Virus record (IMG/VR): IMGVR_UViG_3300032282_005050
Span: 1 to 28,938 of that record
Reading direction: 5' to 3' (one strand)
Length of the DNA stretch: 28,938 bases
Origin: a virus
Shown here: positions 2,684 through 25,172 of the stretch, one piece after another
Numbering within the stretch: position 1 is the first letter of the stretch
Layout of the letters: the number at the start of each line of letters is the position of its first letter
Position numbers and translations under genes: made by a program
Notes under the pieces: model-generated
Seen by the model: only the letters and a program-made list of their open reading frames with translations
What the model was told of the DNA's origin: nothing
Database searches by the model: none

Positions 2684-3061
2684 ATGACAAGAATAAATTC
2701 TGGAATTAATCCAAATGAATTAACAGACAGACATCTCTTAGCCGAAGCTAGAGAAATTAAGCGAGTACCGAATTGTGTATCTAGAGGTAGGTATAATTTA
2801 AAAAATGTTCCTTTAAAATTTACTTTAGGTAAAGGACATGTAGCATTCTTTTATAATAAATTAGGATATCTAAAAAATAGATATGAAGATATATATCAAG
2901 AATGTAAAATTAGAGGATTTAACGTCCAATATTGGGGAAGCGCTTGGGATATGGTACCTAAAGAATTAATGAATGATTATCTTCCTACTAAAGAAGATAG
3001 AGAAATTATTACCCAACGAATTAATGAAAGATTAAATAAAATTAATAAACATGGAAAATAA
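2684..3061 (+). CDS. denV: Pyrimidine-dimer DNA glycosylase / AP lyase, T4 endonuclease V-like
   Basis: This base-excision repair enzyme removes UV-induced pyrimidine dimers and nicks the abasic site. The protein begins MTRIN exactly like T4 endonuclease V. Thr2, whose free amino group is the nucleophile once Met is removed, and Arg3 are present. His17, Arg23, catalytic Glu24 and Arg27 match T4 His16, Arg22, Glu23 and Arg26 with a one-residue shift. GKGHVAFFYNKL and the ECKIRGFN block also match. Because Thr2 must be residue 2, the start at 2684 is certain. At 125 residues it is shorter than T4 DenV (138) and lacks the aromatic C-terminal tail. It overlaps the next gene by 11 nt. A repair enzyme suits a phage of sunlit water, though that habitat is inferred. 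Confidence 0.95.
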   Translation: MTRINSGINPNELTDRHLLAEAREIKRVPNCVSRGRYNLKNVPLKFTLGKGHVAFFYNKLGYLKNRYEDIYQECKIRGFNVQYWGSAWDMVPKELMNDYLPTKEDREIITQRINERLNKINKHGK

Positions 3062-18484: not shown

Positions 18485-19105
18485 ATGATACATACTACAA
18501 AAATTTATCTAGTAACTAATTGTTATAATGATCCTAATAAAGTTTATATAGGAAAAACTAAAAATAACAGAAATTCTAATCATAAAAGAATATTTGGGGA
18601 AAATATTGTATATGTTGAAATAGATCAAATAAACTCTTTAAATAGATATGATTGGGAACCCCTAGAATCATATTGGATAGAACAATTCATACAGTGGGGA
18701 TTTAAAGTTTTAAACAAAAATCGAGGTGGAGGGGGTCCTATTACTCATTCTCAAAAAACAAAACATAAGCTTAAAATAGCTAACATAGGTCGTTCTAAAC
18801 CTGAAGGGTTTAGTGAAAAACTAAGTCAAATAAAAACAGGAATTAAATTATCTAAAAATCATTGTGATAAAATTTCTCAAGGAAAATTAGGTAAAAAACA
18901 ATCTCAATCATTTTTAGATAAAAAATATAAACCAATACTTCAACTAGATAAAAATAATAACCTAATCCAAGAATTTAAAAGTATAGAAGAAGCATCAAAT
19001 AGTAATAATAAATTTAAAAGATCAAATATAAGTTGTTGTTTAACTGGATTCTCAAAAACAGCTTATGGTTATAAATGGATATATAATATAAATCAATTTA
19101 CCTAA
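18485..19105 (+). CDS. GIY-YIG homing endonuclease with NUMOD DNA-binding motifs
   Basis: This 206-residue selfish endonuclease nicks DNA at a target in related phages and spreads by repair. The N-terminal GIY-YIG domain shows IYLVTN (residues 7-12), VYIGKTKNNR (20-29) and catalytic Glu61 in PLESYWIEQF. From about residue 85, NUMOD3-like helices follow (HSQKTKHKLKIANIGRSKP, SEKLSQIKTGIKLS, KISQGKLGKKQS). A NUMOD1-like C-terminus comes next (PILQLDKNNNLIQEFKS, then SNISCCLTGFSKTAYGYKW). All expected parts are present, so it may be active. It is free-standing between sheath and tube genes and converges on the next gene. The nearest T4 parallels are the seg and I-TevI-type enzymes. Confidence 0.92.
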   Translation: MIHTTKIYLVTNCYNDPNKVYIGKTKNNRNSNHKRIFGENIVYVEIDQINSLNRYDWEPLESYWIEQFIQWGFKVLNKNRGGGGPITHSQKTKHKLKIANIGRSKPEGFSEKLSQIKTGIKLSKNHCDKISQGKLGKKQSQSFLDKKYKPILQLDKNNNLIQEFKSIEEASNSNNKFKRSNISCCLTGFSKTAYGYKWIYNINQFT

Positions 19106-19125: not shown

Positions 19126-19152
19126 AGCGTTAAGAAATTAGTCGCTTTTTTT
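19126..19152 (+). terminator. Weak terminator candidate between convergent homing genes
   Basis: AGCG (19126-19129) can pair with CGCT (19143-19146), followed by a run of seven T. The stem is only 4 bp plus A-T pairs and overlaps the 3' end of the minus-strand gene. Confidence 0.3.
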
Positions 19153-20625
19153 CTTGAAAACATATTTTTTGTTCCCGCAATCCCAAACACGCCTATATTT
19201 GTTAGCTAACATATTTTCATATTCTGATATATTATTATCAAATATTGGTAATAATTTATTTAATTTATGTTTTTGACATGACATTCTATTTAATATATTA
19301 GAATTTTTCCAATAAAAATAAGAGGGACTAGTATTTTTATCAAATACAAATCCTAATTGTTTATATAAATTACCTTCCGAAAATCTCCTATCAGCAAAAG
19401 TAATAATTTCTTCTTCTATATTTAAATGATTTTTTACAAAATGAGAAAATAATTTAGATGCCCCTCCAACAATCATATGGTTTAATTTATTACAAAAACG
19501 TACTAATTCCATTTGATTAGAATTTTTCTGAAAACGATTTTTCCCAAAGGTCATAACAGATACTAATTCATTATTATAATATAAACCTAAATTAACTTTA
19601 GAATAACAATAACCTTGTATATGATTATTATTTAAAAATGTTCTTAATACGGATGTATCAATTATTGGTTTAATAATACATTTACGAGCGTATATTTTAT
19701 TAGTAATTTTACCTAATTTACTTCTAATAATTGATTCTAATATAGGTTTTTTATAAATCCATTCATAATCAAATATATGTATAAGCTGTATATTCTTTTC
19801 ATTACAATGGTTTGTTTTATATAAATGATAATCTTTATATTTTCCCATAGATTCTGAATGCCAATAAATCCCATTAATTTCAAAAGCAATATTTAATTCT
19901 GGTATTAATATATCTAATTCTAATCTATTTGGTAATATATCTTTATTTCTTAATTGTATAACATTTTTAGGTAATAATTTATTAATAAAAGTATATATTT
20001 CCTCTTCTATTATTGAATATCCTTTATTATCTGAACAATCACAAGAGGGTAAATAACCATTTGCTAATGATACTGTGGAAGTATTATTACATAATTTACA
20101 TTTAAATCCAAACTTATTATCTTCATAAAATGTTAATTTATTATCTAATAATGTTTTTTTATCAAAAAGTGGAATTAAATTTGTTTGTTCACAATATTTA
20201 ACTATTTTTTCCCATTTTATATTAACAAAATTTATTCTATCTTTAGGTTTATTTTTAAGTGAAATAGATACTTTATCAGCAATATCTTTATTCATCATAG
20301 CCACAGGTACATTATATCTCTCTTGGATAGTATTATCTGATTTTTCCTTAAATTCAGGAACTAAAAAAGGATTTTCAACTCCATATTTTTTCCTTAAATT
20401 ATTTTTATATGTATCTTGTACTTCTTTAGATTTAAAAGCAATTTCATTTCCATATTTTTCTAAACAAGTTTTTTTTCGCTTTTCCATCCATGTTTTATCA
20501 ACACCCTTAAATTGTTGAGCACAGGGACCAGAACAAAATTGTCTGGTTTTAGATAATAAAGTAAAAAATTCTTTATTACATAATTTGCAAATATTACTTA
20601 CTTGTTCTTTTTTAGGTCTAGCCAT
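19138..20625 (-). CDS. Large homing endonuclease, EDxHD/Vsr-like nuclease with zinc fingers
   Basis: This 495-residue protein is on the minus strand, opposite to every structural gene. Residues 13-35 form a treble-clef-type zinc site (C13, C16, C31, C35). About 50-125 carry YGxExPF-type repeats (EKYGNEIAFKSKE, KKYGVENPFLVPE). A second Cys cluster is at C176, C179, C195 and C197. The nuclease core follows: RLELDILIPELNIAFEINGIYWHSE with Asp238, Glu249 and His256, and then LIHIFDYEW near 281-289. This matches the Vsr-like EDxHD homing endonucleases such as I-Bth0305I. The C-terminus has KYRRVWDCGNKKY, the block also left in the relic at 8184-8315. It is apparently intact and has its own upstream motif on the minus strand. 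Confidence 0.88.
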   Translation of the reverse strand: MARPKKEQVSNICKLCNKEFFTLLSKTRQFCSGPCAQQFKGVDKTWMEKRKKTCLEKYGNEIAFKSKEVQDTYKNNLRKKYGVENPFLVPEFKEKSDNTIQERYNVPVAMMNKDIADKVSISLKNKPKDRINFVNIKWEKIVKYCEQTNLIPLFDKKTLLDNKLTFYEDNKFGFKCKLCNNTSTVSLANGYLPSCDCSDNKGYSIIEEEIYTFINKLLPKNVIQLRNKDILPNRLELDILIPELNIAFEINGIYWHSESMGKYKDYHLYKTNHCNEKNIQLIHIFDYEWIYKKPILESIIRSKLGKITNKIYARKCIIKPIIDTSVLRTFLNNNHIQGYCYSKVNLGLYYNNELVSVMTFGKNRFQKNSNQMELVRFCNKLNHMIVGGASKLFSHFVKNHLNIEEEIITFADRRFSEGNLYKQLGFVFDKNTSPSYFYWKNSNILNRMSCQKHKLNKLLPIFDNNISEYENMLANKYRRVWDCGNKKYVFKKKSD

Positions 20626-21375: not shown

Positions 21376-21543
21376 ATGAAAAACATTATTTTAATTAGCT
21401 TAATTGCTGTAACTTTAACCCTCACATCTTGCTCTGGGGAAAACAATTCAAAACAAATTACCACAGATTCTACATCTGTTGATTCATTAAAAGTTGATTC
21501 TATTGTGATAGATAGTATTTATGGATCGGATTCTATTAAATAA
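21376..21543 (+). CDS. Small phage-encoded lipoprotein
   Basis: This 55-residue protein has MKNIILISLIAVTLTLTSCS at its N-terminus: a short basic n-region, a hydrophobic core, and a lipobox LTSC with Cys19 as the lipidation site. The mature part is about 37 residues, rich in Ser, Thr and Asp (DSTSVDSLKVDS, VIDSIYGSDS), and probably unfolded on the membrane surface. It has two late-type motifs upstream and sits between the tail tube and baseplate genes, so it is probably made late. Small phage lipoproteins can block receptors and prevent superinfection (T5 Llp) or help lysis (Rz1). No Rz partner is seen here, and the first mature residues lack a clear Bacteroidota surface-export signal. The function is therefore open. 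Confidence 0.85.
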   Translation: MKNIILISLIAVTLTLTSCSGENNSKQITTDSTSVDSLKVDSIVIDSIYGSDSIK

Positions 21544-21564: not shown

Positions 21565-22326
21565 ATGGATAATCAAGTTATAGATCAAAACACCAAACCA
21601 AAGTTCCCAACAGAAACTATTACTCTTCCTTCTAAAGGTTTAATATATCCCCAAGATAATCCACTATCAAGTGGTAAAATCGAAATGAAATATATGACTG
21701 CTAAAGAAGAAGATATTTTAACAAATGAAAATTATATTAAACAAGGAATTGTTTTTGATAAATTACTACAGTCATTAATTATATCTCCTATAAACTATGA
21801 TGATTTAATTATTGGAGATAAAAATGCTCTATTAATTGCTGCTCGTATATTAGGATATGGTAAAGATTATAATTTTAAATATAATAATGATAATATAACA
21901 GTTGATTTAACCGAATTAGCTGAAAAACATCTTGATGATTCTTTAATTACACCTAACACTAATGAATTTCATTTTGAATTACCTCATTCAAAAAATAAAA
22001 TTACATTTAAAATATTAACATCAGGTGATGAAAAGAAAATTGATAGTGAAATAAAAAATTTAAAAAGAATTAATAAAAACATTTCAGCCGAATTATCAAC
22101 ACGAATGAAATATATTATTACTTCAATAGAAGGTGATTCATCAACTAAAACTATTAGAGATTTTATTGATAATTATTTATTAGCTAAAGACTCTCAAGCA
22201 TTAAGAGAATATATTAAAAAAATACAACCCAACATCGAATTAGTATTTGATTATGATGGTCCTAATGGTCTTGAGGAGGAGATTGTATTGCCACTAACGG
22301 CTAACTTTTTTTGGCCTTCAAATTGA
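21565..22326 (+). CDS. Baseplate hub assembly protein, T4 gp26-like (PF12322 type)
   Basis: This 253-residue protein shows the signature of the T4 baseplate/gp26 family: ITLPSKGLIYPQDNPLSSGKIEMKYMTAKEEDILT at residues 18-52, then GIVFDKLLQSLII and GDKNALLIAARILGYGKDY. The helical C-terminal part ends ELVFDYDGPNGLEEEIVLPLTANFFWPSN. Such proteins act in assembling the baseplate hub and in tail initiation. The 3' end has a run of seven T (22306-22312) just before the TGA. A startless ORF in the +1 frame continues beyond it, directly before the tape measure gene. That arrangement resembles frameshifting tail assembly chaperones (lambda G/GT type). It starts 21 nt after the lipoprotein stop. Confidence 0.85.
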   Translation: MDNQVIDQNTKPKFPTETITLPSKGLIYPQDNPLSSGKIEMKYMTAKEEDILTNENYIKQGIVFDKLLQSLIISPINYDDLIIGDKNALLIAARILGYGKDYNFKYNNDNITVDLTELAEKHLDDSLITPNTNEFHFELPHSKNKITFKILTSGDEKKIDSEIKNLKRINKNISAELSTRMKYIITSIEGDSSTKTIRDFIDNYLLAKDSQALREYIKKIQPNIELVFDYDGPNGLEEEIVLPLTANFFWPSN

Positions 22327-22540
22327 GGATAGAGTTAATCTATTTAAACAAATACATGAAATAATATTTTATGGAAAAGGTGGATATAATTGGGAAACAG
22401 TTTATAATTTTCCTATTTGGTTAAGGAATTATACTTATCAATTAATAGTTGAAGCATATGAAAATGAAAGAAAAGCTAATGAAAAAAACCAAAATCAAAT
22501 AGATTTAAATAATCCATCCAATTTCAAAAATAAAAGGTAG
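22298..22540 (+). CDS. Startless downstream ORF, probable frameshift extension of the gp26-like gene
   Basis: The frame is open from the TAA at 22295 to the TAG at 22538. It lies in the +1 frame relative to the gp26-like gene and overlaps its end. It has no in-frame ATG, GTG or TTG; only an ATT at 22322. The translated piece (EDRVNLFKQIHEIIF, YGKGGYNWETVYNFPIWLRN, then a charged helix) looks like real protein. The G-x-x-W-x-x-V-Y-x-x-P-x-x-L-R pattern recalls the second half of phage tail assembly chaperones and gp51-like proteins. It could be reached by +1 or -2 ribosomal frameshifting, or by transcript slippage on the T7 run at 22306-22312. A one-base sequencing error in that run would also make one long ORF. 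The coding nature is clear; the mechanism is not. Confidence 0.75.
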   Translation, partial: RLTFFGLQIEDRVNLFKQIHEIIFYGKGGYNWETVYNFPIWLRNYTYQLIVEAYENERKANEKNQNQIDLNNPSNFKNKR

Positions 22541-22585: not shown

Positions 22586-24874
22586 ATGGCCAAAGCTAAA
22601 AAAAATACAACAGAAGCTGAATTAAGACAAGAAATACATGAATCATCAGTTATTATTGAAGATACTTTACGAAGTGTAGCAGATAATATAGGGAATGTTA
22701 TGATGCAATTAGTAAAAGATGGAGCAAATATAACTAAGAGTATGGTTAGAGATTTACAATCTGATTTAAATAATATTGCTAGAAGTGGGAAAGTTTTAAA
22801 TGATATAACTGAAAAAGCTGTTAAAGGTAAATTAACAGAAAGAGATATTTCTAAAGAATTGTTAGCTAGAGAAATCAAATTAAAAGTTATTAAAGCTCAA
22901 ATTGAAATAGCAGAAAATAATAGTAATAAAAATAGCAAAGAACATAAAAAAAATATTAAAGAATTAAATAAACAATATCAAATAGCTGTTTCAAATAATG
23001 AAAAAGTGGAAGAAGAAATGAGGAAACAACTAAAATATTCTAATGAAATGAAAAAAGCATTAGGATTAACAGGAACTGCTATGGCTGGATTAGAAAAAAT
23101 AACTAATAAATTAGGACTTAGTGGTTTAGATGATGTTTTTGCTAGGGGTAGGGAAGAGGCTGAAAAAATGGCAAAAACATTAAATGAAAACCAAAAAAAT
23201 ATGGGAAGCTTTTCTACTAAATTAAAAGTAGCATTTGCTGGGATGAAAGGGATGGCAAGTGGAATTGGACAATTTTTCAAACCAGAAGCTATATTAGCAG
23301 GAATAACTGGGATTATTTCTAAAATAGTAAGTTTTATTAAAGAGGCTTATGAAGAAGGAAAAAATGCAGCTGAAAGGATAAGTGAGGAAAACGTTGGGAT
23401 GGCTAGAAGTATAGGTTTAGCCCAAAGTGAAGCTACTAAATTAGCTGAAAATTTTAAAGGAATAGGCCCAACAGTAGCCGCATCTAAACAATCAGTAGAA
23501 GGAATATATACTGCTTTAGGCACTACTGAAAAATTAAGTAATAATACTTTAAAAACATTTATTAAATTAAATACCTATGCTGGTATGTCTGCTGAAAATT
23601 TAGCTGAAATCCAAAGATTATCTAAAGTATCAGGACAAGATGCTGGAGTATTAGCTTCAAATATGGCTAATACTGCATTGCAGATGAAGAAAAATTATAA
23701 TTTATCTATTAGTGTAAAAAATCTATTAGCGGAAACTAGTAAAGTATCAAATATATTAAAAGTTAATTTAGGAGGTTCAGGAACAGCTTTAGTAAAAGCA
23801 GTTGCCCAATCTAAAGCTTTAGGTTTAGAATTTGACAAAATTGAAGGTATAAGTAATAGTTTACTTAATATAGAAGATTCAATATCAGCTCAAATGGAAG
23901 CTGAATTATTAACTGGTAAATCTTTAAATCTTGAAAAAGCAAGAGAATATGCTTTAAATCATAATATAGAAGGATTATCTAGTGAAATAGCTAAGAATTT
24001 TGGTTCAATAAATGAATTTCAAAATTTAAACACCATCCAACAAGAAGCCTATGCTAAAGCTATAGGAATGAGTAAAGAAGATTTAGCTGGTATTTTAATA
24101 GCACAAAAAGAAAATCGTAACATACAAGGTGATTTAGTTAAAGGACAAAAAGATGGTATAGCTTCTATGTCTTCAGAAATGAGTTTGGCAGAAAAACAAG
24201 CCAATATAGATAGACAAAGAGAAGAAGCATCTATTAAATTTTATGAAACTTTAGTTCCATTAGTTCAAGAATGGCAAAAATTAATGGGTGCTATAAAAGA
24301 AGTATTTGCTAGTATATTTAAAGAAATAGCAGGGCCAGGAATGCAAAATTTATCTGGGTCTATTAGTCATATTACAAAAAATATCAAAAGTTTCACATAC
24401 AGTATAGTAAATACATTTAAAACCATTTATAAATACCGGGCACTTATAACGGCTCTCTTAGGAGCTGCTGCAATTGGGATGAGTTTTGTCCCTGGTGGAG
24501 CTATTTTAGCAATGCCTTTAGGTACAGCTGCTTTGGCAATGGGATCGATAACAGCTATAGGTGATGATGTAGTTTCTTCAGGATATGGAGATAGAAAACT
24601 TGTAACATCAAGTGGTACATATGCTTTAAATAACCAAGATACAGTTATAGCAGGAACTAATTTATTTAGAGCAAATGATATAATGAGTAAAGCAGATGAT
24701 GTAATGTCATATCCTAAAGGAGCTTTAAGTGTTGGAGGAGGTAGTAGTGATAATAGTGGTGTTATAGCAGCTATTAAAGAATTAATTGATGAAGTTAGAA
24801 GAGAAAAACCTATAATGTTAGATGGTAATAAAGTAGGAGTAGCTCAAGGTTTATCAAATTACAAATCTAGATAA
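22586..24874 (+). CDS. Tail tape measure protein
   Basis: This 762-residue, mostly helical protein fills the tail tube and sets its length. At about 1.5 angstrom per residue it would fit a tail of roughly 110 nm, comparable to T4. The N-terminal half is coiled coil (EAELRQEIHESSVIIEDTL, then Lys/Glu-rich heptads). Residues about 205-255 are Gly/Ala-rich and helical. About 610-660 hold a hydrophobic stretch (YRALITALLGAAAIGMSFVPGG, split by Pro/Gly; then LAMPLGTAALAMG) that may insert in the host inner membrane. The C-terminal SSGYGDRKLVTSSGTYALNNQDTVIAGTNLF resembles the tape measure ends of myophages. It is preceded by the gp26-like/startless pair and followed by baseplate genes, as expected. 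Confidence 0.88.
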   Translation: MAKAKKNTTEAELRQEIHESSVIIEDTLRSVADNIGNVMMQLVKDGANITKSMVRDLQSDLNNIARSGKVLNDITEKAVKGKLTERDISKELLAREIKLKVIKAQIEIAENNSNKNSKEHKKNIKELNKQYQIAVSNNEKVEEEMRKQLKYSNEMKKALGLTGTAMAGLEKITNKLGLSGLDDVFARGREEAEKMAKTLNENQKNMGSFSTKLKVAFAGMKGMASGIGQFFKPEAILAGITGIISKIVSFIKEAYEEGKNAAERISEENVGMARSIGLAQSEATKLAENFKGIGPTVAASKQSVEGIYTALGTTEKLSNNTLKTFIKLNTYAGMSAENLAEIQRLSKVSGQDAGVLASNMANTALQMKKNYNLSISVKNLLAETSKVSNILKVNLGGSGTALVKAVAQSKALGLEFDKIEGISNSLLNIEDSISAQMEAELLTGKSLNLEKAREYALNHNIEGLSSEIAKNFGSINEFQNLNTIQQEAYAKAIGMSKEDLAGILIAQKENRNIQGDLVKGQKDGIASMSSEMSLAEKQANIDRQREEASIKFYETLVPLVQEWQKLMGAIKEVFASIFKEIAGPGMQNLSGSISHITKNIKSFTYSIVNTFKTIYKYRALITALLGAAAIGMSFVPGGAILAMPLGTAALAMGSITAIGDDVVSSGYGDRKLVTSSGTYALNNQDTVIAGTNLFRANDIMSKADDVMSYPKGALSVGGGSSDNSGVIAAIKELIDEVRREKPIMLDGNKVGVAQGLSNYKSR

Positions 24875-24887: not shown

Positions 24888-25172
24888 ATGGCACTTATAG
24901 ATTCATTAAATAAAACTCAATTAGATTTAACTGGTAATGGACCTAAAAATTCCCCACAGTATAAACACGTTCAAACGTATACTCCTAACAAACAATATGA
25001 TCCTGGAGGAGTAAATAATGATAATTTATCTAAAAAAGATTATGTACTTGAAAAATCTAAATTAGATTTAACTGGTAATGGACCTAAAAATTCCCCACAG
25101 TATAATTATGTTCAAAAATATACTAATAAAAATACATATTTAAATAGTTTACCTCCATTAAACCAACAATAA
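24888..25172 (+). CDS. Small protein with two perfect internal repeats
   Basis: This 94-residue protein holds LDLTGNGPKNSPQY twice, at about residues 12-25 and 59-72. Each copy is followed by x-x-V-Q-x-Y-T. The repeats are identical even at the DNA level over 46 bp. The rest is polar and Pro/Asn-rich with little predicted helix, which suggests an extended linker or two binding peptides that grip repeated partners. Its position between tape measure and baseplate genes (the stop overlaps the next ATG by one base) suggests a baseplate or tail-tip component. It matches no family I can name. Confidence 0.78.
   Translation: MALIDSLNKTQLDLTGNGPKNSPQYKHVQTYTPNKQYDPGGVNNDNLSKKDYVLEKSKLDLTGNGPKNSPQYNYVQKYTNKNTYLNSLPPLNQQ
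24919..24964 (+). repeat. 46-bp in-frame direct repeat, copy 1
   Basis: Identical to 25060-25105, offset by 141 bp (47 codons), within the gene at 24888. Confidence 0.95.
25060..25105 (+). repeat. 46-bp in-frame direct repeat, copy 2
   Basis: Identical to 24919-24964. Both copies encode the LDLTGNGPKNSPQY motif. Confidence 0.95.

What the first reader, a model, noticed from the sequence alone, without database searches (positions are those of the whole stretch)
22295..22540. Startless ORF after the gp26-like gene: probable programmed frameshift before the tape measure
The gp26-like frame ends in TGA at 22324. A clearly protein-like ORF in the +1 frame overlaps it from 22298 and runs to 22540 with no ATG, GTG or TTG anywhere. 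A run of seven T (22306-22312) lies in the overlap and allows re-pairing of Phe-tRNA by +1 or -2, or transcript slippage to T6. The pair lies directly before the tape measure gene, where long-tailed phages commonly encode frameshifted tail assembly chaperones (lambda G/GT; -2 in Mu). This would link T4-type gp26/gp51 to that general scheme.
Basis: partly seen in the sequence, partly recalled or inferred. Interest (0 to 1): 0.8.

Follow-up and report, generated by a model that had tools for sequence, protein, structure and literature searches.

The report
Plus-one frameshift in phage tail chaperone
Two overlapping reading frames just before a phage's tail-length ruler gene are almost certainly joined when some ribosomes slip forward one base, making a short and a long tail-assembly helper protein from one gene; this is a known trick, used here with a forward slip where the gene's better-known relatives slip backward.

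Summary
The gp26-like ORF (21565-22326) is overlapped in the +1 frame by a startless ORF (22298-22540) just before the tape measure gene, with T7 at 22306-22312. Startlessness alone is weak (P about 0.2 by codon usage). The conserved arrangement is not: the window and all 160 environmental relatives fetched keep the +1 relation, and 141 of 142 distinct junctions keep a [T/C]TT_T slip codon at one place. The second frame evolves as protein. Variants TTC TTT TGG and TTC CTT TGG exclude -2 re-pairing and a poly-T requirement, so +1 slippage of the P-site tRNA, as at prfB CUU_U, fits best. The one relative without a slip site has an ATG-started second ORF in another frame. The fused protein extends the match to the gp26/gp51 family (phrog_150) into the C-terminal part that T4 gp51 has and gp26 lacks, so the pair is TAC-N plus TAC-NC. 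Tail chaperones of T4-like phages, and -1 poly-T frameshifts in them, are already published (Vladimirov et al. 2022, seen only as cited). Apparently new: the +1 sign at the codon pair where cyanophages and several jumbo phages slip -1. No expression data exist.

The parts
21565..22326 (+). ORF1, gp26-like protein of 253 aa = TAC-N, the short form of the tail assembly chaperone
   Evidence: phrog_150 baseplate hub, E 1.4e-11, profile positions 9-233 of 282; PF12322 in 25 of 42 aligned relatives; predicted N-terminal domain resembles tail assembly chaperones 3klu, 2ob9
22298..22326 (+). overlap in which the frame change must happen (+1 frame open, frame 0 not yet stopped)
22306..22312 (+). T7 slip site: frame 0 TTT TTT TGG; proposed P-site codon 22309-22311 re-pairs on 22310-22312, A-site TGG is replaced by GGC
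   Evidence: [T/C]TT_T at this codon in 141 of 142 distinct junctions; TTTTTTTGG or its variants in all loci
22298..22540 (+). ORF2, startless +1 frame; from about 22310 it codes TAC-C, the C-terminal extension of the long form (fused protein 324 aa)
   Evidence: the fused protein extends the phrog_150 match to profile position 264, bits 45.3 to 52.6; phrog_634 (gp51) in 12 of 82 relatives
22586..24874 (+). tape measure protein gene, 762 aa, directly downstream
   Evidence: 28% identity over 384 columns, E 1e-29, to the annotated tail tape measure protein of Flavobacterium phage immuto
20716..21204 (+). tail tube protein gene upstream (context)
   Evidence: phrog_4542 E 1.1e-22, PF06841 E 6.3e-06

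Best explanation
The two frames are one gene for the tail assembly chaperone of a distant T4-like myovirus. Most ribosomes read ORF1 to TGA 22324 and make TAC-N (253 aa, gp26-like). A minority, after decoding TTT at 22309-22311 and with TGG waiting in the A site, slip the P-site tRNA forward one base onto TTT 22310-22312. They read on through ORF2 and make TAC-NC (324 aa, ...TANFFGLQIEDRV...), the counterpart of T4 gp51. By analogy with lambda gpG/gpGT, both forms would coat the tape measure protein and the TAC-C part would recruit tail tube subunits. Shown here: the reading frames, the slip site, their deep conservation, protein-level selection on ORF2, homology of the fusion to gp51. Inferred: that slippage occurs, its rate, and the chaperone function.
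For: (1) 161 of 161 loci keep ORF2 in the +1 frame; TTT TTT TGG CCT GAC in 131. (2) 141 of 142 distinct junctions have a [T/C]TT_T codon at the same place, the only position conserved throughout as a re-pairing site. (3) In L174-L181 the shift can only occur within about 20 nt, e.g. GGC TTC TTT TGG CCT GAC GAA TGA, where TTT_T is the only +1-capable codon and no -2-capable codon exists. (4) CTT_T variants (TTT CTT TGG/TAC; TTC CTT TGG in L189; immuto TTT CTT TGG) match the prfB slip CUU_U, where UUU_U also occurs (PMC5009743; PMC12421855). (5) ORF2 third-position bias 1650/1024/3897. (6) The frame-0 stop varies in identity and distance (15-36 nt) while the slip site is fixed. (7) L184, the only locus without a slip site, has an ATG-started ORF2 in another frame. 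(8) Rhodothermus phage RM378 keeps T7GG and a +1 ORF2. (9) The fusion aligns into the gp51-specific end of phrog_150. (10) Tape measure gene next.
Against: No expression data. No prfB-type Shine-Dalgarno directly upstream and no strong conserved downstream structure (mean fold z -1.14 downstream, -0.75 upstream). The +1 A-site codon GGC is rarer than TGG in the window (11 against 64 of 6016), the reverse of what helps +1 shifts. L184 shows that a separate ATG-started ORF2 is tolerated at least once. Many relatives have an unconserved start codon upstream in the +1 frame (70 of 129).
Confidence: 0.88

Rival explanations
1. The ribosome shifts -2 (as in phage Mu), with tRNA-Phe re-pairing two bases upstream within T7. 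The product would carry one extra Phe (FFFGL).
For: In the T7 form TTT(22309-22311) can re-pair at -2; such a codon exists in 131 of 142 distinct junctions. -2 shifting is known in Mu (PMC5009743).
Against: 11 distinct junctions have no -2 re-pairing codon there, including the TTC TTT TGG group (L174-L188) and L189 (TTC CTT TGG), yet ORF2 stays in the +1 frame.
Confidence: 0.05
2. RNA polymerase slips on T7 and a share of transcripts has T6 (or T9), joining the frames in the mRNA.
For: T7 in a very AT-rich gene; most relatives have an unbroken run of seven or more T.
Against: TTTCTTT, TTCTTTT and TTCCTTT variants break the run but keep the arrangement.
Confidence: 0.03
3. ORF2 is a separate gene started at a rare codon (CTG two codons after the slip, ATT 22322 in the window) or by reinitiation at the ORF1 stop. 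T4 gene 26 itself has an internal product gp26' (from memory started at AUU).
For: CTG in 121 of 129 relatives two codons after the slip; L184 has an ATG right after the ORF1 stop.
Against: The window has CTT there, Mel-JY01 and others CTA, RM378 ATA; no start codon of any kind is conserved throughout. The ORF1 stop is not fixed in place. Conservation centres on TTT/CTT T, which a start codon would not need. The fused form matches gp51.
Confidence: 0.04
4. Sequencing error or a decayed gene: the real sequence has T6 and one long ORF.
For: Homopolymer next to the frame change; a single metagenomic contig.
Against: 160 other contigs and the isolates immuto, Mel-JY01 and RM378 have the same +1 relation; several lack a long homopolymer; ORF2 is under protein-level selection.
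Confidence: 0.01

Closest known systems
[quoted passage not shown]
   Same: Same protein family (gp26/gp51, PF12322, phrog_150), short and long form; poly-T frameshift signals are cited for T4-like TAC-N genes (PMC12846349)
   Different: Cited there as -1 signals; here the shift is +1 at [T/C]TT_T. The full paper could not be read, so whether it lists +1 groups is unknown to me
T4 gp26 and gp51
   Same: Both are PF12322; gp51 carries the C-terminal extension that corresponds to ORF2
   Different: T4 uses two separate genes and no frameshift; here one gene and a slip
Lambda gpG/gpGT
   Same: Chaperone gene before the tape measure gene, C-terminal domain reached by a low-rate frameshift (PMC5009743)
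   Different: Lambda shifts -1; sequence similarity was not tested
prfB (RF2) +1 frameshift
   Same: P-site re-pairing at CUU_U or UUU_U, followed by G (PMC5009743, PMC12421855)
   Different: Sense codon TGG (or TAC, TTC, TAT) instead of a stop in the A site; no Shine-Dalgarno three bases upstream; makes two products instead of autoregulating
gp26-like genes of cyanophages S-SM2 and P-SSM2, KVP40, PA5oct, XacN1, RAS14
   Same: Frame change possible at the same Phe-Phe codon pair, TAC-C-like extension behind it
   Different: T_TTT_TTC or T_TTT_TTT heptamer and the -1 frame

Membership tests
Tail assembly chaperone pair TAC-N / TAC-NC | Located directly upstream of the tape measure gene | tested here: met
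   22586-24874 matches the annotated tape measure protein of immuto
[quoted passage not shown]
   By sequence only; one relative (L184) differs
Tail assembly chaperone pair TAC-N / TAC-NC | TAC-N fold | tested here: inconclusive
   Model pLDDT 91.7; the three best second-look matches are YqbN 3klu Z 5.8, HK97 TAC 2ob9 Z 4.9, 5ir0 Z 4.0, all others 2.3 or less; Z under 8; the plain Foldseek search gave no match at E 0.001
Tail assembly chaperone pair TAC-N / TAC-NC | Both forms are made in a fixed ratio and bind tape measure and tail tube proteins | not testable with these tools
   Needs proteomics and binding assays
T4 gp26/gp51 family (PF12322, phrog_150) | Sequence profile match of ORF1 | tested here: met
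   phrog_150 E 1.4e-11; PF12322 not reached by the window protein itself but by 25 of 42 aligned relatives, best E 1.5e-28
T4 gp26/gp51 family (PF12322, phrog_150) | Extension corresponds to the gp51-only C-terminal part | tested here: met
   gp26 ends at profile position 235, gp51 at 280; ORF1 at 233, fusion at 264 with higher score; phrog_634 in 12 of 82 ORF2 relatives, best E 2.5e-4. Single-sequence hhalign found nothing
prfB-type +1 frameshift | CUU_U or UUU_U slip codon | tested here: met
prfB-type +1 frameshift | Stop codon in the A site and Shine-Dalgarno-like sequence three bases upstream | tested here: not met
   A-site codon TGG; no conserved purine-rich stretch next to the slip. It works like prfB but is not of that family
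-1 frameshift of T4-like TAC genes | Extension in the -1 frame behind X_XXY_YYZ | tested here: not met
   Extension is in the +1 frame in the window and all 160 relatives

The most novel reading that the evidence does not exclude
In T4-like tail chaperones one conserved Phe-Phe codon pair serves as frameshift site in both directions: -1 at T_TTT_TTC in cyanophages, KVP40 and several jumbo phages, +1 at [T/C]TT_T in the window's clade, RM378 and the SP-15 group, with T4 having replaced slippage by two genes and L184 by a new start codon. The sign of a programmed frameshift can then flip in evolution while site, product and function stay.
Probability: 0.65. Interest if true: 0.6.

Novelty: new variant of a known kind. 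Interest (0 to 1): 0.5.

Why it matters
Frameshifted tail chaperones are widespread in long-tailed phages, and T4 was long named as the exception. A +1 site with a sense codon in the A site and no obvious stimulator is a simple test bed for how forward slips are driven. The same codon pair lying before a -1 frame in relatives makes it possible to ask what decides the direction.

Tried and rejected
hhalign of the narrow fusion, ORF1 and ORF2 profiles against single T4 gp26, gp51 and gp28 sequences found nothing; the comparison was made through phrog_150 instead. A fold of the fused protein was not possible: four-letter codon words are restricted in that tool, so ORF1 and ORF2 were folded apart. 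Sequence searches of solved structures gave nothing useful for either part. Foldseek with ORF1 in PDB and ORF2 in viral structures gave no match at E 0.001; the weak viral list does hold a Moogle tape measure chaperone and the ZZ1 gp51, too weak to count. Rfam gave only a sub-threshold chance match. Considered and rejected: sequencing error, -2, transcript slippage, rare start codon (see rivals). Scans of viral contigs for relatives of RM378 and RAS14 gave only RM378 itself or nothing. Monophyly of the +1 groups is not rejected (AU p 0.26), so the number of sign changes (3 on the best tree) is not established.

Full report
Observation. The sequence is as described. ORF1 (21565-22326) ends ...LTANFFWPSN*. 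The +1 frame opens after TAA 22295-22297 and runs to TAG 22538-22540, reading RLTFFGLQIEDRVNLFKQIHEIIFYGKGGYNWETVYNFPIWLRNYTYQLIVEAYENERKANEKNQ... It holds no ATG, GTG or TTG. Two cautions: an 80-codon frame without a start codon has P about 0.20 here, and T7 or longer occurs seven times in the window. The case rests on comparison.

Neighbourhood. The window carries a T4-like structural module: major capsid Gp23 (PF07068, E 2.3e-74), tail sheath, tail tube, then the gp26-like gene, ORF2, tape measure and baseplate genes. The tape measure assignment rests on similarity to the annotated one of Flavobacterium phage immuto (E 1e-29). ORF1 matches phrog_150 (baseplate hub; T4 gp26 and gp51) with E 1.4e-11.

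Relatives. ORF1 and ORF2 were each used to scan IMG/VR. In all 161 loci, the window included, ORF2 lies in the +1 frame relative to ORF1. The core is TTT TTT TGG CCT GAC in 131 loci; the rest are variants such as TTT CTT TGG, TTT TTT TTC and TTT CTT TAC. The frame-0 stop differs in identity and mostly lies 15-36 nt after the start of the slip site. Most ORF2s run 75-105 codons beyond it. Beyond the overlap, substitutions between ORF2s fall mainly on third codon positions (1650/1024/3897), so ORF2 is translated. In-frame start codons upstream of the slip exist in 70 of 129 distinct relatives but at no conserved place.

Mechanism. A re-pairing analysis listed, for each junction, every frame-0 codon inside the open overlap whose tRNA could re-pair one base downstream or two bases upstream. 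The second slip codon, [T/C]TT followed by T, is +1-capable in 141 of 142 distinct junctions. In L174-L181 the overlap is only about 20 nt (for example GGC TTC TTT TGG CCT GAC GAA TGA); TTT_T is the only +1 site and there is no -2 site. L189 has TTC CTT TGG. So neither a long T run nor a -2 step is needed. The choice between CTT_T and TTT_T is the one seen in prfB (PMC5009743, PMC12421855). The prfB features that are missing are a stop codon in the A site and a Shine-Dalgarno-like sequence; no strong downstream structure was found either (mean z -1.14). A low rate would suit a chaperone that needs few long forms, but the rate is unknown.

Natural control. L184 is the only locus without the slip codon (TTC TTG TAT). 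It is also the only one found whose ORF2 lies in another frame, with an ATG directly behind the ORF1 stop. In the tree it sits beside frameshifting relatives, so it looks like a recent replacement. It is a single metagenomic contig.

Deep conservation. Rhodothermus phage RM378 has TCC TTT TTT TGG AAT AAG TTA TGA and a 76-codon +1 frame. Flavobacterium phage immuto has TTT CTT TGG, and its ORF2 is annotated only as a short piece from an internal ATG; Microcystis phage Mel-JY01 has T7. SP-15, LIS04 and GXN1 also have a +1 extension (TTT TTT CAC, TTT TTT AGT, TTC TTT CGT). In S-SM2, P-SSM2, KVP40, PA5oct, Atu_ph07, Serratia BF, Munch, XacN1 and RAS14 the extension is in the -1 frame behind T_TTT_TTC or T_TTT_TTT at the same Phe-Phe pair. 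The best tree needs three changes of sign, but a single +1 clade is not rejected (p 0.26); at least one change is needed if the family is one.

What the extension is. T4 gp26 ends at position 235 of phrog_150 and gp51 at 280. ORF1 ends at 233; the fused window protein reaches 264 and the score rises from 45.3 to 52.6 bits. Twelve of 82 ORF2 relatives match phrog_634 (gp51) and ten match a tail assembly chaperone family, weakly. ORF2 is predicted as a helical domain (pLDDT 85). The ORF1 model (pLDDT 91.7) has three second-look matches that stand above the rest: YqbN, HK97 tail assembly chaperone and a PICI protein, Z 5.8, 4.9 and 4.0. These Z values are low and count as a hint only.

Prior knowledge. 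Lambda-type G/GT frameshifting was described as widely conserved among long-tailed phages except T4 (PMC5009743). Vladimirov, Gautam and Davidson 2022 then identified the tail chaperones of T4-like phages; I could not read the paper. Its title and two citing papers say that some T4-like phages use separate short and long genes and that poly-T -1 signals exist in T4-like TAC-N genes. From memory, its abstract names genes 26 and 51 of T4 and frameshifting in several groups. PRFect notes that 350 of 2718 annotated frameshift slip sites of SEA-PHAGES phages, nearly all in tail chaperones, are forward ones, so a +1 chaperone as such is not new. The finding is therefore a new variant of a known kind.

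Verdict. The mechanism is narrowed to +1 slippage at [T/C]TT_T with about 0.88 confidence. Everything about expression, ratio and function remains to be measured.

Noticed in passing
window 18485-19105 (+) and 19138-20625 (-): Two likely mobile or selfish genes sit between tail sheath and tail tube: a GIY-YIG-looking endonuclease with a NUMOD1 domain (just under the curated cut-off) and a 495-aa ORF on the other strand with DUF7487 and a weak Mom match.
   Followed up: partly
window 21376-21543: A 55-aa lipoprotein-like ORF (MKNIILISLIAVTLTLTSC..., lipobox) lies between the tail tube and gp26-like genes; no Pfam match. It could be a superinfection exclusion lipoprotein.
   Followed up: no
L184 2130-2540 (IMGVR_UViG_3300001528_000621): The only relative without the slip codon has ORF2 with its own ATG in another frame, with about 25 new N-terminal residues.
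   Followed up: partly
window 24888-25172: The 94-aa ORF after the tape measure gene contains two near-identical repeats (LDLTGNGPKNSPQY.xVQ.YT), about 45 residues apart.
   Followed up: no
L162 4845-4955: In Flavobacterium phage immuto ORF2 is annotated only from an internal ATG; the frameshifted part is missing from the GenBank record.
   Followed up: yes
window 2684-3061: A pyrimidine dimer DNA glycosylase (PF03013, E 1.3e-11), the T4 DenV type, lies in the structural region.
   Followed up: no
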